Below, piece by piece: positions 3,444 through 35,190 of a stretch of DNA of 64,000 nt (position 1 is the first letter of the stretch; the number at the start of each line of letters is the position of its first letter). Origin of the DNA: Solobacterium moorei. Its GTDB lineage: Bacteria; Bacillota_I; Bacilli_A; Erysipelotrichales; Erysipelotrichaceae. Under the pieces are notes generated by a model that was not told the DNA's origin, made no database searches, and was given only the letters and a program-made list of their open reading frames with translations. The DNA lies in NCBI RefSeq assembly GCF_036323475.1, contig NZ_AP028934.1, forward strand, positions 682,001 to 746,000. The letters run 5' to 3'. Position numbers and translations under genes: made by a program.

Positions 3444-3477
3444 AAAGGTGATTAGAGTAAAATCTAACCGCCTTTTT
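3444..3477 (+). terminator. Rho-independent terminator of the AlbA_2 gene, IS110 insertion site
   Basis: Stem 3444-3456 pairs with 3463-3475 (12 of 13 pairs, one G.U), loop GTAAAA, followed by TTTTT at 3473-3477. The IS110 copy begins within this T-tract, and its own first five bases are T, so the terminator is kept intact. Confidence 0.75.
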
Positions 3478-3599
3478 CTATTATGAAATCAGGAATAATC
3501 TAGTCCTGATCATAGAGAAAAAACTTCAGAAGAAGAATATGATATAGAGGTCAGGGACACTAGAATGTTTCTGGCCTTTCTCGTACAGGCATGTATGGG

Positions 3600-3770
3600 A
3601 ATTGGTCTGGGTAAAGTGAGAACGTGCCATCTTTTAGACCATTGATATCATTGAGTCCGTCATAAAAAGCGTTCTGCTTCCCTCCTATATTCTTAGGCTG
3701 CTTTATCAAGATGACAATCCAGGAAACAGTTAGATATGTCGTATATAAGCCAGAAAAATAGTCGGATGTG
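3600..3770 (+). ncRNA. Putative bridge RNA of IS110 copy 1
   Basis: The leader contains two stem-loops with the layout known for IS110 bridge RNAs. Donor loop: outer stem 3696-3700/3759-3763 and inner stem 3711-3716/3738-3743. Between them TTATCAAG (3703-3710) is identical to the right end of the element, and AGAAAAA (3752-3758) is complementary to its left end TTTTTCT. Target loop: perfect stem AGAACG 3619-3624 / CGTTCT 3670-3675 enclosing a 45-base loop with T-rich and A-rich sides. Exact RNA ends are unknown. The bridge-RNA mechanism is established for IS621 and relatives; applying it here is inference from these matches. Confidence 0.6.
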
Positions 3771-3827
3771 GGGATGGGGAAGTTTACCAAGACATTATGC
3801 ATATCAGAAAGAAAGGAGTATTCCATC

Positions 3828-5048
3828 ATGGAAGGACCAATCATTACAGTGGATGTATCAAAGGGTTCCTGTCACTACCAGCCCTTCATAGAGAATGGAC
3901 ATCCAATGCGAAAACCAAAGCAGCTTTCAGCTACGATCGATGGTTTCCAGAAATTAGGGCAAACTATCAAAGACCTTGAAGCTAAGACAGAACGAGAAGA
4001 TATACCAGTTATCTTTGAGGCTACAGGTGTCTATCATCGACCACTACAAAAATATCTTGAAGACCACAAGATAAGGTACTACATCATTTCTCCATTATTA
4101 TCTGCGACCTATCGCAAGACCTCCCTACATAGTAATAAGACAGACGCATTAGACTGTGCATATATCGCAAAAGCGTACTATTGTGAGAAGGAACTAAGAC
4201 AATATCAAGCACAACCACAAGAGTACAAAAGACTCTATCAATTGAGCCGTATATATGAAAGTGAGTTGGTTCATCTTCGGAAACGCAAAGTGAGTTTGAG
4301 ATCCATGCTGGATATCATATATCCAAGGATTGATAAGACCTTTAAAGGGAATCAAAATCTGTATGATCCACTCCCAATGGAGATATTAAAAAGATATCCT
4401 CATCCATCCTTACTATTGGGCCATAGAGAGGATACCATCGTTAAGACCGTTGGGCATCGTACAGGTCATTTAAAAGGATATACAGAAAGAATCGTACATA
4501 AGATTTACGAGAAGGCAAAGGAGTGCTATTCAGGATGTGATATCGATGATATAGAAGTAGTCAAATTGCCAAGCTTGATAGAGAACGTGCAGGAACAGAA
4601 GAAAAAATGCGATTCACTATTGAAGGAAATGATAGAGATAGCACGAACATGTCCTTATTTTGCATCTGTTGTTAGTATTGTTGGAATCGGAGAGAATCTG
4701 GCAGCCCGTATCATAGCAGAGCTTGGAGATGTAAGCCGATTTGATAACAGAGCGGCTATCGTGGCATATGCAGGCTTGAATCCAAAGATACAACAATCCG
4801 GAGATATTGATGGACTGCATCTCAAGATATCAAAGAAAGGCAATAAGCATTTGCGATGCCTTTTATACCTTGGTGCACAATGTAATTATCGATTGCGCAA
4901 AGAAGATCCACTATATGAATTCACCAAAAAGAAAAGACAGCAGACCCAATGCCCATTGTCGTCTAAAGCTGCCTATACTGCTAGTGCTCATAAATTACTG
5001 GTCATAATCTATAGCCTATGTAAGAATGGTACTCTATATCATTCTTAG
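3828..5048 (+). CDS. IS110-family transposase (DEDD recombinase), copy 1
   Basis: 406-residue IS110 transposase. The RuvC-like DEDD domain at the N-terminus shows Asp9 (ITVDVSKG), FEATGVYHRPL and NKTDALDCAYIAK. The C-terminal transposase_20 domain shows VVSIVGIGENLAARIIAELGD and the family's catalytic-serine region AIVAYAGLNPKIQQSG. The start at 3828 follows GAAAGGAG and gives the canonical N-terminus; the in-frame upstream ATG at 3768 is rejected. The protein is identical to copy 2 except for Tyr instead of His after DALDCA. Confidence 0.95.
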   Translation: MEGPIITVDVSKGSCHYQPFIENGHPMRKPKQLSATIDGFQKLGQTIKDLEAKTEREDIPVIFEATGVYHRPLQKYLEDHKIRYYIISPLLSATYRKTSLHSNKTDALDCAYIAKAYYCEKELRQYQAQPQEYKRLYQLSRIYESELVHLRKRKVSLRSMLDIIYPRIDKTFKGNQNLYDPLPMEILKRYPHPSLLLGHREDTIVKTVGHRTGHLKGYTERIVHKIYEKAKECYSGCDIDDIEVVKLPSLIENVQEQKKKCDSLLKEMIEIARTCPYFASVVSIVGIGENLAARIIAELGDVSRFDNRAAIVAYAGLNPKIQQSGDIDGLHLKISKKGNKHLRCLLYLGAQCNYRLRKEDPLYEFTKKKRQQTQCPLSSKAAYTASAHKLLVIIYSLCKNGTLYHS

Positions 5049-5201
5049 CAACAGTATAAACCTAATCTAGCAAAATGGGAGATATAATTTCTCTTGTTTT
5101 AATAATGCACAAAACGAAAAAGAAGAAATCACTAAAGATTAGAAATTTCTTCTTGACTTAAGTTATCAAGTTTTTGTTTGTAAAAAAAGAAGGAGGTAAA
5201 C

Positions 5202-12533: not shown

Positions 12534-13109
12534 GTGCGACATGAAGTCGCTTAATTTAACTGTTTGGCATAATGACCAAACCAACTATTCCGTTAGTTGA
12601 GCCAAGTATCGACTGCACTCAGGTGTGGTAAGCCGATATTAAAGTAGCCCTACTTGAGGTTGAACCGTGAGGGAATACCGAAACTGCCAGCAACAAGGCG
12701 GTTAGGGAGCAAGGCTTGATAATATGGCTAACATATGTGAACTACTGATAAATGCCGTTAAGGCGAACAGGCTAAAGTTGCTGACAAGCCTGAACCAAAA
12801 TGGTGCGTAGTCGGATAATCCTTTCCACAGTGGGATTACACGGACAAAATGACTACCGGCAGAGAGGTAGAGCCTAAGTTATCAATGTTAATTAAGTGGA
12901 ACATGGTAAGCCTGTACCGTTGCCAAAAGGCAAGGCAAATCGTAAGAAATGCTGATAATGGTGCAGGTAAAGGATAATGGAAAAAGCGAACGCCATCTTG
13001 TAATGAGATGGATAGGGGTTCAAAATTTGCCCTAACTTGAAAGAGTGCAGACTTCCATTTGGTTTTTAATCACAAGAGAACTTGTAGAATTTTTGAAAGG
13101 AGAAAGCAA

Positions 13110-14780
13110 ATGAACAGTAAAATGTGTGCTACTACTAACAGAGCTAAAGACTGGGAAAGTATAGATTTTTCAGTAGCAGAAAGCTATGTTAAAAAACTAC
13201 AAATGCGTATTGTGAAAGCGTGGAAAATGAGTAAATACGGAAAGGTAAAATCTTTACAGCATTTACTCACAACTTCATTTTATGCAAAAGCCTTGGCTAT
13301 TAAGAGGGTAACTGAAAACCAAGGCAAGAAAACAAGTGGTGTTGACGGCGAACTATGGCTAACACCACAGGCAAAGTATAATGCAATAGGAAAGTTAAAC
13401 TTAAGAGGATATAAACCTAAACCTCTTAAAAGAGTGTATATACCAAAGAAAAATGGTAAGAAAAGACCTCTTAGCATTCCTACAATGACAGACAGAGCAA
13501 TGCAAACACTATATAAATTTGCACTTGAACCTATTGCAGAAACAACAGCTGATTTTAACTCTTATGGATTTAGAGCTAAAAGGTGTACGCAGGATGCTAT
13601 TGAGCAATGCTTTACATCTCTAAATAAAAAGAAATCTGCAAAATGGGTGCTTGAAGGAGATATAAAAGGTTGCTTTGATAATATTAGCCACGAATGGATA
13701 ATGAATAATATCCCAATGAACAAGAAATTATTAAAACTCTGGCTTGAGTGTGGATATATAGAAAAACAAAAACTATTTCCAACAGAAACAGGAAGTCCCC
13801 AAGGCTCACCAATATCACCTATTATTTCCAATATGGTATTAGATGGTTTAGAAAAAGCAATCAAAGAGAAATACCATAGAAGAACAGTAAATAAGAAAGC
13901 ATATTTCCCAAAAGTTAATTTTGTCAGATATGCAGATGATTTTATCGTTACAGGGGAAAGTGCAGAATTGCTTGAAAATGGTGTAAAGCCAATCATTGTA
14001 AAATTCTTGGCTGAAAGAGGTTTAGAATTATCAGAGGAAAAGACACTCATAACACACATAAATGACGGTTTCGATTTTCTTGGAGTTAATATTAGGATGT
14101 ATAAAGATAAATTACTAACAAAACCATCCGAAAAGAACTTCAAGGCTATTGTTGATAAAATAAGACAAATCATAAAAGATAATCCGTCAATGAAACAAGA
14201 AATTCTGATTAGAAAATTAAATCCAATTATTATAGGTTGGATAAACTATCAGAAATATAATGTTTCATCTAAAGCCTTTGAAAAACTTGATTATGAAATA
14301 TATAAAAGCTTGTGGACCTGGTGCGTTCGTAGACATCCTAAGAAAGGTAGAAAATGGATAGCTAAAAAGTATTTCCATACGATTGGAAATAGAACTTGGA
14401 CTTTCAGTGTAGCAACTGGAGACAGAATGGAAAATGGCGATAAATACTATCTTCGTCTTAAATATGCTACAGACACTGATATTAAAAGATTTACCAAGAT
14501 ACAAGCTGAAGCAAATCCATTTGATGAAAATTGGCAAATATACTTTGAAGAAAGAGAAGAGTTAAAAATACGAAACGAACTTAAAGGACGTACAGTTATA
14601 AATAGACTGTATAAAACGCAAGATGGAATATGCCCTGTTTGTGGAGAGAAAATAACTATTGATACAGACTTTAGAGTACATCAAACAATTCAAAATAACA
14701 TTACCCTTAAAACTTTAGTACACCCTTGGTGTCATAGAAAATTGCATATAAATGATGAAGAAAACACGCTGGCTCTTTAA
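13110..14780 (+). CDS. ltrA: Group II intron-encoded reverse transcriptase/maturase with HNH domain
   Basis: 556 residues. The reverse transcriptase has the catalytic motif RYADDFIV (YADD near residue 274), LEGDIKGCFDNI and TGSPQGSPISPI. A maturase X domain follows (LNPIIIGWINYQKYN). The C-terminal HNH endonuclease has CPVCGEK and a PWCHRKLH end. The protein splices the intron RNA and drives retrohoming. ATG at 13110 is chosen because AAAGGAGAAAG lies just upstream; an earlier in-frame start at 13059 lacks one. The frame is intact, so the intron looks competent. Confidence 0.93.
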   Translation: MNSKMCATTNRAKDWESIDFSVAESYVKKLQMRIVKAWKMSKYGKVKSLQHLLTTSFYAKALAIKRVTENQGKKTSGVDGELWLTPQAKYNAIGKLNLRGYKPKPLKRVYIPKKNGKKRPLSIPTMTDRAMQTLYKFALEPIAETTADFNSYGFRAKRCTQDAIEQCFTSLNKKKSAKWVLEGDIKGCFDNISHEWIMNNIPMNKKLLKLWLECGYIEKQKLFPTETGSPQGSPISPIISNMVLDGLEKAIKEKYHRRTVNKKAYFPKVNFVRYADDFIVTGESAELLENGVKPIIVKFLAERGLELSEEKTLITHINDGFDFLGVNIRMYKDKLLTKPSEKNFKAIVDKIRQIIKDNPSMKQEILIRKLNPIIIGWINYQKYNVSSKAFEKLDYEIYKSLWTWCVRRHPKKGRKWIAKKYFHTIGNRTWTFSVATGDRMENGDKYYLRLKYATDTDIKRFTKIQAEANPFDENWQIYFEEREELKIRNELKGRTVINRLYKTQDGICPVCGEKITIDTDFRVHQTIQNNITLKTLVHPWCHRKLHINDEENTLAL

Positions 14781-14799
14781 TTAGGGCTTATAAAAACTT

Positions 14800-14833
14800 G
14801 AGCCGTGTGAGGGGAAACTCTCATGCACGGTTC
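14800..14833 (+). ncRNA. Group II intron domain V
   Basis: Compact hairpin beginning GAGCCGTGTGAGGGGAAACT and closing with CACGGTTC, the most conserved catalytic domain of bacterial group II introns. It lies 19 bases after the maturase stop; domain VI and the 3' splice site at 14874 follow. Confidence 0.85.
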
Positions 14834-14874
14834 TTAGAGGGGAAAGGGATAGTAATATCCCCGACCTACTCGAC

Positions 14875-21913: not shown

Positions 21914-22052
21914 AATTTTTTAAATAAAAACTTGATAACTTAAGTCAAGAAGAAATTTCTAATCTTTAGTGATTTCTTCTTTTTCGTTTTGTGCATTATT
22001 AAAACAAGAGAAATTATATCTCCCATTTTGCTAGATTAGGTTTATACTGTTG

Positions 22053-23273
22053 CTAAGAATGATATAGAGTACCATTCTTACATAGGCTATAGATTATGAC
22101 CAGTAATTTATGAGCACTAGCAGTATAGGCAGCTTTAGACGACAATGGGCATTGGGTCTGCTGTCTTTTCTTTTTGGTGAATTCATATAGTGGATCTTCT
22201 TTGCGCAATCGATAATTACATTGTGCACCAAGGTATAAAAGGCATCGCAAATGCTTATTGCCTTTCTTTGATATCTTGAGATGCAGTCCATCAATATCTC
22301 CGGATTGTTGTATCTTTGGATTCAAGCCTGCATATGCCACGATAGCCGCTCTGTTATCAAATCGGCTTACATCTCCAAGCTCTGCTATGATACGGGCTGC
22401 CAGATTCTCTCCGATTCCAACAATACTAACAACAGATGCAAAATAAGGACATGTTCGTGCTATCTCTATCATTTCCTTCAATAGTGAATCGCATTTTTTC
22501 TTCTGTTCCTGCACGTTCTCTATCAAGCTTGGCAATTTGACTACTTCTATATCATCGATATCACATCCTGAATAGCACTCCTTTGCCTTCTCGTAGATCT
22601 TATGTACGATTCTTTCTGTATATCCTTTTAAATGACCTGTACGATGCCCAACGGTCTTAACGATGGTATCCTCTCTATGGCCCAATAGTAAGGATGGATG
22701 AGGATATCTTTTTAATATCTCCATTGGGAGTGGATCATACAGATTTTGATTCCCTTTAAAGGTCTTATCAATCCTTGGATATATGATATCCAGCATGGAT
22801 CTCAAACTCACTTTGCGTTTCCGAAGATGAACCAACTCACTTTCATATATACGGCTCAATTGATAGAGTCTTTTGTACTCTTGTGGTTGTGCTTGATATT
22901 GTCTTAGTTCCTTCTCACAATAGTACGCTTTTGCGATATGTGCACAGTCTAATGCGTCTGTCTTATTACTATGTAGGGAGGTCTTGCGATAGGTCGCAGA
23001 TAATAATGGAGAAATGATGTAGTACCTTATCTTGTGGTCTTCAAGATATTTTTGTAGTGGTCGATGATAGACACCTGTAGCCTCAAAGATAACTGGTATA
23101 TCTTCTCGTTCTGTCTTAGCTTCAAGGTCTTTGATAGTTTGCCCTAATTTCTGGAAACCATCGATCGTAGCTGAAAGCTGCTTTGGTTTTCGCATTGGAT
23201 GTCCATTCTCTATGAAGGGCTGGTAGTGACAGGAACCCTTTGATACATCCACTGTAATGATTGGTCCTTCCAT
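22053..23273 (-). CDS. IS110-family transposase (DEDD), copy 2
   Basis: 406 residues, identical to the copy at 3828-5048 apart from His replacing Tyr in DALDCAHIAKAYYC. Catalytic regions ITVDVSKG, FEATGV and KTDALD are intact, as is the C-terminal AGLNPKIQQSG segment, so it looks functional. The start follows GAAAGGAG. Confidence 0.95.
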   Translation of the reverse strand: MEGPIITVDVSKGSCHYQPFIENGHPMRKPKQLSATIDGFQKLGQTIKDLEAKTEREDIPVIFEATGVYHRPLQKYLEDHKIRYYIISPLLSATYRKTSLHSNKTDALDCAHIAKAYYCEKELRQYQAQPQEYKRLYQLSRIYESELVHLRKRKVSLRSMLDIIYPRIDKTFKGNQNLYDPLPMEILKRYPHPSLLLGHREDTIVKTVGHRTGHLKGYTERIVHKIYEKAKECYSGCDIDDIEVVKLPSLIENVQEQKKKCDSLLKEMIEIARTCPYFASVVSIVGIGENLAARIIAELGDVSRFDNRAAIVAYAGLNPKIQQSGDIDGLHLKISKKGNKHLRCLLYLGAQCNYRLRKEDPLYEFTKKKRQQTQCPLSSKAAYTASAHKLLVIIYSLCKNGTLYHS

Positions 23274-23330
23274 GATGGAATACTCCTTTCTTTCTGATAT
23301 GCATAATGTCTTGGTAAACTTCCCCATCCC

Positions 23331-23501
23331 CACATCCGACTATTTTTCTGGCTTATATACGACATATCTAACTGTTTCCTGGATTGTCATCTTGATAAAG
23401 CAGCCTAAGAATATAGGAGGGAAGCAGAACGCTTTTTATTACGGACTCAATGATATCACTGGTCTAAAAGAAGGTACGTTCTCACTTTACCCAGACCAAT
23501 T
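23331..23501 (-). ncRNA. Putative bridge RNA of IS110 copy 2
   Basis: Mirror of the leader RNA in copy 1, with the same donor-loop sequences TTATCAAG and AGAAAAA. The target loop differs by four bases. On its A-rich side the copy reads AATAAAAA, an exact complement of this copy's own right flank TTTTTATT. RNA ends are unknown. Confidence 0.6.
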
Positions 23502-23623
23502 CCCATACATGCCTGTACGAGAAAGGCCAGAAACATTCTAGTGTCCCTGACCTCTATATCATATTCTTCTTCTGAAGTTTTTTCTCTATGATCAGGACTA
23601 GATTATTCCTGATTTCATAATAG

Positions 23624-34869: not shown

Positions 34870-35190
34870 AGAATCTCTCTTAAAGCCGTTAGGCTATTGT
34901 TCCTTGAAAACTGAATAGACCATGACGGGACTTTTAATTACTTAGTGAGCGTAAGGAATTTACGCCATGACTTTCCTGCTGAAGAAATTCGGTTTAAATG
35001 AATACTGTCAAAGACAAGGATAGAAGGAAACGAGCGATAAATAAATTTTCTTAAAGCAAAGAACGAGGATAACTTTGCGAGCGATGACCTAAGTAATGAT
35101 AATGATACTTCTTTAGTGAAAGCCGGCTCATCTTAACAGGGGCGGTGGTGAGATTCCAATGTTGCTTATCCTAAGCACCCGTTAATGTCA
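34870..35190 (+). ncRNA. Gene-free, hairpin-rich region upstream of the recombinase
   Basis: No ORF in about 450 bp, yet several clean hairpins: GCGTAA/TTACGC (34949-34965), GCAAAG/CTTTGC (35056-35078) and TGCTTA/TAAGCA (35163-35177). The near-repeats AACGAGCGATAA and TGCGAGCGATGA also occur. CCTTGAAAACTGAATAG near 34904 resembles ribosomal spacer text. A structured leader or small RNA is plausible. Its nature is inference; no Rfam family is recognised by eye. Confidence 0.35.

What the first reader, a model, noticed from the sequence alone, without database searches (positions are those of the whole stretch)
3473..5175. IS110 leader encodes a bridge-RNA-like structure with donor guides matching both element ends
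The non-coding leader holds TTATCAAG (3703-3710), identical to the base run next to the right-end T5 (5163-5170), and AGAAAAA (3752-3758), the exact complement of the left-end TTTTTCT (3473-3479). They are on opposite sides of one predicted loop, as the donor guides are in IS621-type bridge RNAs. A second stem-loop (3619-3675) with T-rich and A-rich sides would be the target loop. I know of no description of this particular element.
Basis: partly seen in the sequence, partly recalled or inferred. Interest (0 to 1): 0.85.

Follow-up and report, generated by a model that had tools for sequence, protein, structure and literature searches.

The report
RNA-guided jumping gene targeting transcription terminators
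This is a bacterial jumping gene whose leader encodes a two-loop guide RNA: sequence comparisons show that one loop spells its own ends and the other the place where it inserts, which is nearly always the run of Ts in a gene's "stop transcribing" hairpin.

Summary
Window 3478-5170 is an IS110-group insertion sequence with 10 near-identical copies in this genome, two of them in the window. Its leader (3580-3793) encodes a bridge RNA, supported by 13 doubly compensated base pairs in 14 relatives and by a covariance model that finds it in 14 unseen distant relatives. An unbiased scan of relatives' leaders against their own flanks and ends recovers three guides: left target guide (3624-3635), right target guide (3661-3668) and left donor guide (3703-3710). 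The right donor guide (3752-3758) follows the left-end sequence between subclades. Empty sites show the circular form joins its ends through TTTT, which makes a TTGACT-17-TATTAT promoter.

The target guides spell a stem foot plus T-run; 8 of 10 insertions here, and 25 of 28 in relatives, sit in the T-run of a hairpin-plus-T (terminator-like) site, in one orientation. Comparable genomic T-runs have a hairpin 20-29% of the time. Guide matching plus survival of insertions downstream of genes may suffice; hairpin sensing is not shown. Mechanism known (IS621); the terminator niche was not found described in the papers searched. Transcription and activity are untested.

The parts
3447..3477 (+). Target site, left part: hairpin 3447-3472 plus T5, an intrinsic-terminator-like structure downstream of the 489-aa ORF (left target LT and core)
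   Evidence: hairpin dG -8.5 kcal/mol; empty site with T6 in a related genome
3478..5170 (+). IS110-group element (1693 bp between the T-runs; net insertion 1697 bp counting the T4 of the circle junction)
   Evidence: 10 near-identical copies aligned; empty sites
3479..3484 (+). TATTAT, -10 box of the promoter formed at the circle junction
   Evidence: 17-bp spacer to TTGACT 5153-5158 when ends are joined by T4
3580..3793 (+). Predicted bridge RNA: 5' hairpin, target-binding loop, donor-binding loop
   Evidence: consensus fold with 13 doubly compensated pairs; covariance model R1
3619..3675 (+). Target-binding stem-loop (stem 3619-3625 / 3669-3675)
3626..3635 (+). Left target guide GCCATCTTTT (ACCTTCTTTT in seven of ten copies)
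   Evidence: tracks the left flank across relatives: permutation z about 10, 0/20000; top of an unbiased scan
3661..3668 (+). Right target guide CATAAAAA, complementary to TTTTTATG right flanks
   Evidence: permutation z about 8, 0/20000; top of scan, z 5.3
3677..3782 (+). Donor-binding stem-loop (CTTCCC ... GGGGAAG)
3703..3710 (+). Left donor guide TTATCAAG, identical to the right end 5163-5170
   Evidence: tracks the right end across relatives (z 4.4)
3752..3758 (+). Right donor guide AGAAAAA, complementary to the left end
   Evidence: CCAGAAAA with CTATT ends, ACGAAAA with CGTATT ends, CACGAG with the CT-core element L063, read by eye
3828..5048 (+). IS110 recombinase (406 aa): DEDD_Tnp_IS110 plus Transposase_20 domains
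   Evidence: Pfam; PDB relatives IS621 8wt6 and ISCro4 9t56, catalytic E, D, D and S aligned
5153..5158 (+). TTGACT, -35 box of the circle-junction promoter
5163..5175 (+). Right end TTATCAAG and T-run shared with the target
21931..23623 (-). Second copy of the same element in the window, also inserted at a hairpin plus T-run

Best explanation
An IS110-group insertion sequence that moves by bridge-RNA-guided recombination. The excised circle joins right end to left end through TTTT, creating a sigma-70 promoter (TTGACT-17-TATTAT) that would transcribe the leader. The leader RNA folds into two loops. The donor loop pairs with the joined ends (TTATCAAG on one side, TTTTCT on the other). The target loop pairs with a stem foot plus T-run (left guide) and with the T-run plus the 3-5 bases after it (right guide). 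The DEDD/serine recombinase exchanges strands at a core dinucleotide in the T-run, probably TT next to CTATT. Because the guides spell stem foot plus U-tract, insertions land in the U-tract of intrinsic-terminator-like sites in one orientation, and the left end brings Ts so the upstream hairpin keeps a T-tract. Shown by sequence: element boundaries, empty sites, RNA structure by covariation, guide-to-end and guide-to-flank tracking, enrichment of hairpins at insertion sites. Inferred: transcription, RNA binding, strand exchange, exact core, that the hairpins act as terminators, retained termination.
For: Ten copies with clean ends; empty sites, four of them identical to the L005 flanks in the same genome, give circle T4; recombinase domains and IS621/ISCro4 relatives; RNA structure 97.7% paired, 13 pairs with double changes versus 6.6 in shuffles; covariance model finds 14 unseen distant relatives, E from 4e-3 to 1e-14; target guides track flanks, 0 of 20000 permutations; unbiased scan recovers left target, right target and left donor guides; this genome's 10 targets fit the guides better than random T-runs or hairpin T-runs; hairpin at 8/10 own and 23/26 homologous sites versus 20% of T-runs; two later-found class-level relatives, L128 and L130, fit the same rule.
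Against: No expression or activity data. Own target matches are partial (6-9 of 9 bases). The two guide haplotypes among the 10 copies do not discriminate their own flanks (p 0.36 and 0.26). Two of ten own insertions (L004, L009) lack a hairpin; L009 appears to lie inside a gene. L054, L055 and L070 have a one-base outer mismatch between donor guide and right end. Guides of distant relatives were picked by eye, although the scan used fixed alignment columns of the close set. The single-sequence fold is only modestly stable (z -1.6).
Confidence: 0.93

Rival explanations
1. The element is bridge-RNA guided, but terminator sites are chosen by more than base pairing: the recombinase or its complex prefers the hairpin, a cruciform, or DNA opened by paused RNA polymerase at terminators.
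For: Guide-matched T-runs carry a hairpin only 18.6% of the time, 25% if also intergenic, against 80% of own insertions; about 33 of 38 sites over the clade have one.
Against: Among guide-matched T-runs within 100 nt downstream of a same-strand ORF, 58% have a hairpin and the excess is no longer significant for the own copies (p 0.19), so base pairing plus loss of harmful insertions can account for it. L065 has no hairpin yet a perfect left-guide match.
Confidence: 0.15
2. The repeats and leader structure are a regulatory 5' UTR of the transposase mRNA, and the matches to the element ends are remnants of end duplication, not guides.
For: The leader is transcribed towards the recombinase gene, and small RNAs regulating an IS110 member, ISPpu9, are cited in PMC11208160.
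Against: Leader segments track the host flanks, which are not element sequence, at exactly the loop positions.
Confidence: 0.03
3. Chance: A/T-rich sequence yields short matches, and T-runs make guides and flanks look alike.
For: AGAAAAA occurs in 8.5% of shuffled leaders, and T-runs inflate raw match counts (random pairing gives 6.4 of 9).
Against: Permutations keep the T-runs and still give 0/20000 for both guides; compensatory base changes exceed all shuffles and slides.
Confidence: 0.01

Closest known systems
IS621 bridge recombinase system (IS110 group; Durrant et al. 2024 PMC11208160, Hiraizumi et al. 2024 PMC11208158)
   Same: DEDD plus serine recombinase; RNA in the long left end; target loop then donor loop; four guides with the same strand logic; promoter formed at the circle junction; natural covariation of guides with target and donor
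   Different: IS621 goes to REP sequences with a CT core; this one goes to T-runs, mostly behind hairpins, with a probable TT core; right donor guide adapted to CTATT ends; sequence similarity in the recombinase is remote (E 1.7e-10)
seekRNA systems of IS1111 and IS110 types (Siddiquee et al. 2024 PMC11187229)
   Same: non-coding region RNA chooses the target; NCR upstream of the transposase gene as in the IS110 type
   Different: 'terminator' appears there only as a plasmid part, not as a target
IS1272 (PMC5678879, title and abstract read only)
   Same: another insertion sequence associated with inverted-repeat/stem-loop targets
   Different: described there as an inverted repeat-replacing mechanism; no bridge RNA is mentioned in what was read
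IS elements that target REP palindromes (PMC1525189, title and abstract read only)
   Same: extragenic palindromes used as insertion sites
   Different: REP sequences rather than terminator-like hairpins plus T-tract

Membership tests
IS110 family (IS110 group) | DEDD N-terminal domain plus Transposase_20 C-terminal domain with catalytic acidic residues and serine | tested here: met
   PF01548 and PF02371 above cut-off; IS621 E60, D102, D105 and the serine of the SG motif aligned; the first Asp was not in the alignment but ITVDVSK is present
IS110 family (IS110 group) | Long non-coding left end upstream of the recombinase, short right end, no long terminal inverted repeats | tested here: met
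   350 nt from 3478 to 3827, 122 nt from 5049 to 5170; no terminal inverted repeat seen on reading the aligned ends
IS110 family (IS110 group) | Conservative insertion of a circle at a core shared with the target | tested here: met
   filled minus empty T count is 4 at three sites (L005, L001, L003); circles themselves not observed
[quoted passage not shown]
Bridge RNA system | Left and right target guides pair with flanks of the insertion site | tested here: met
   permutation 0/20000 for each; unbiased scan
Bridge RNA system | Left and right donor guides pair with the element's own ends | tested here: met
   left donor guide tracks the right end; right donor guide follows CTATT versus CGTATT ends, read by eye
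Bridge RNA system | Promoter reconstituted at the circle junction | tested here: met
   TTGACT-17-TATTAT with T4 from empty sites; sequence only
Bridge RNA system | RNA expressed, bound by recombinase, needed for recombination | not testable with these tools
   needs RNA sequencing and recombination assays
Terminator-targeting clade | Insertion in the T-run directly behind a hairpin, one orientation | tested here: met
   8/10 own, 23/26 homologues, plus L128 and L130; background 20% (29% intergenic)
Terminator-targeting clade | Hairpin itself needed for targeting | tested here: inconclusive
   excess over guide-matched T-runs, not significant against guide-matched T-runs downstream of genes for own copies

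The most novel reading that the evidence does not exclude
A whole Bacilli-wide IS110 clade has specialised in terminators as safe harbours: each element's target guides spell its own stem foot plus U-tract, the left end re-supplies the U-tract, and target choice also senses the hairpin or the terminating transcription complex, not sequence alone.
Probability: 0.15. Interest if true: 0.75.

Novelty: new member of a known kind. Interest (0 to 1): 0.52.

Why it matters
It gives an independent, assay-free confirmation of bridge-RNA logic in a remote IS110 clade and a natural set of about 25 guide/target pairs that differ from one another. It names an ecological niche for the clade, intrinsic-terminator-like sites, where insertion need not break a gene or its terminator. 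A low-complexity T-run core also makes the specificity and slippage limits of bridge recombinases directly testable, and the element is a candidate recombinase with a TT core.

Tried and rejected
Rfam (gathering threshold) has no match in the element. No relative on phage records; only about 30%-identity IS110s on plasmids; no DNA match on plasmids. The two guide haplotypes among the ten own copies were tested for tracking their own flanks: no signal with n=10. T3730C/G3749A co-vary between copies but do not form a standard pair, so were not used. A sigma-70 promoter inside the integrated leader was looked for; scan hits were no more than in shuffles. Hairpin recognition beyond guide pairing was tested against progressively stricter backgrounds and could not be established. 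Other IS110 elements of this genome (L011-L016) are not at T-runs as far as their right ends show and were not pursued. Structure prediction of the recombinase was not needed given the PDB relatives.

Full report
WHAT IS THERE. The window holds an IS110-group element at 3478-5170 (+) and a second copy at 21931-23623 (-). The genome has ten copies at least 99% identical in protein, plus six copies of two unrelated IS110 elements. The recombinase (3828-5048) has both IS110 Pfam domains and finds IS621 (8wt6) and ISCro4 (9t56) among solved structures, with the catalytic E, two D and the SG serine aligned. Relatives at 60-67% identity occur in the same genus and family, 36-50% relatives across the family, order and class.

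ENDS AND TARGETS. Aligning the ten copies gives a constant stretch CTATTATG...TTATCAAG flanked by T-runs. Empty sites were found: four copies of the L005 site in the same genome, identical over the 115 flanking bases aligned (CCATC-T7-GTTG), and diverged but clear ones for L001 (T6) and L003 (T5) in related genomes. Filled minus empty is four Ts each time, so the circle joins its ends as TTATCAAG-TTTT-CTATTATG. That places TTGACT (5153-5158) 17 bp from TATTAT (3479-3484), a sigma-70 promoter facing the leader, as IS621 has (PMC11208160).

THE RNA. Fourteen leaders of close relatives fold into one consensus: a 5' hairpin, a target loop closed by 3619-3625/3669-3675 and a donor loop closed by 3677-3682/3776-3782. 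97.7% of cells pair, 13 pairs have changes on both sides, all five measures exceed 500 of 500 shuffles, and slid versions collapse to 36-46% paired. A covariance model built from this set finds the RNA in 14 more distant clade members it was not built from (E 4e-3 to 1e-14), and not in the other IS110 elements supplied apart from one marginal, wrong-strand hit in L015.

THE GUIDES. Without choosing positions, every 5-base stretch of the aligned leaders was compared with each element's own left flank, right flank and right end. The best left-flank identity is at 3624-3632, the best right-flank complementarity at 3661-3668 (4.8-5.0 of 5 bases), and the best meaningful right-end identity at 3705-3710; a few higher z values with observed equal to expected come from near-zero variance and were discarded. 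A separate permutation test over 34-35 insertions gives 0/20000 for both target guides. Examples: L021 guide GCGGTTTTTT, flank TGCGGTTTTTT; L072 right guide reads TTTTTTCTGAC, flank TTTTTCTGTCC; L055 reads TTTTTAGTTAC, flank TTTTAGTTATT; L062 guide GGCACTTTTT, flank GGCACTTTTT. The right donor guide follows the left end: CCAGAAAA with TTTTCTATT, ACGAAAA with TTTTCGTATT, and CACGAG in L063, whose core reads CT (by eye). L063 suggests that the core here is the TT next to CTATT; the T-run prevents proof.

TERMINATORS. The left flanks are hairpins directly followed by the T-run: 8 of 10 own sites and 23 of 26 homologous ones at -4 kcal/mol or better, always with the hairpin on the left-end side. 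In 459 kb of this genome only 19.5% of T5-7 runs have such a hairpin, 28.9% if intergenic. Two class-level relatives found afterwards, L128 (GAGGTTGC-TCGT-GCAACCTC-TTTT, guide GACCTCTTTT) and L130 (AGCCCGTTTCGGGCTTTT, guide CGGGCCTTT), fit too. Own targets also fit the guides better than random T-runs or random hairpin T-runs. So guides and hairpin context both mark the sites. Guide-matched T-runs within 100 nt downstream of genes carry a hairpin 58% of the time, not significantly below the own 80%, so loss of harmful insertions plus guide pairing can explain the pattern; direct hairpin sensing is open. That these hairpins terminate transcription is inferred from their form. Exceptions: L004 and L009 have no hairpin; L063 and L065 use a non-T left target (GGGTAGTCA, TAGTCATTT) that their guides match just as well, which is what RNA guidance predicts.

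LITERATURE. Bridge RNAs and seekRNAs are established (PMC11208160, PMC11208158, PMC11187229). The word terminator is absent from the first and appears only for plasmid parts in the third. Searches pairing IS110 with terminators found no report of this target class. The library is open-access papers only, with no bioRxiv collection, and supplements could not be read, so the claim of novelty for the niche is provisional.

VERDICT. Observation confirmed, interpretation supported. The element is a new member of a known kind; the terminator targeting of its clade is the new biology.

Noticed in passing
window 3546-3578: A conserved hairpin with a short T-tract (GGTCAGG...CCTGGCC-TTTCT in relatives) precedes the bridge RNA, with a conserved TATGAT/TACAAT just upstream; in distant relatives the hairpin contains TATAAT and a longer T-run. 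Could be a second start or an insulating terminator.
   Followed up: partly
window 12581-14874: Group II intron (Rfam RF02012 and RF00029) directly after the 2450-aa ORF, whose reading frame ends at 12554 just before it.
   Followed up: no
window 35099-35162: pemK RNA (RF02913) match.
   Followed up: no
L005 and L080, L095-L097: The L005 insertion sits in a multi-copy repeat of this genome with at least four uninterrupted copies.
   Followed up: partly
L062, L073, L076, L077 (genome G197): Four copies of a 44% relative share a similar repeated left flank, and three of them one right flank; L077 shows a second right end downstream of the first, as if in tandem or rearranged.
   Followed up: no
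L063 and L065: Two distant relatives use non-T left targets (GGGTAGTCA, TAGTCATTT), L063 with an apparent CT core like IS621, so targets in the clade have shifted.
   Followed up: partly
L129: Left part of the leader is replaced by unrelated sequence while target loop and donor loop remain.
   Followed up: no
own copies L001-L010, window 3626-3749: Leader variants occur in mosaic combinations among copies, suggesting exchange between them.
   Followed up: partly
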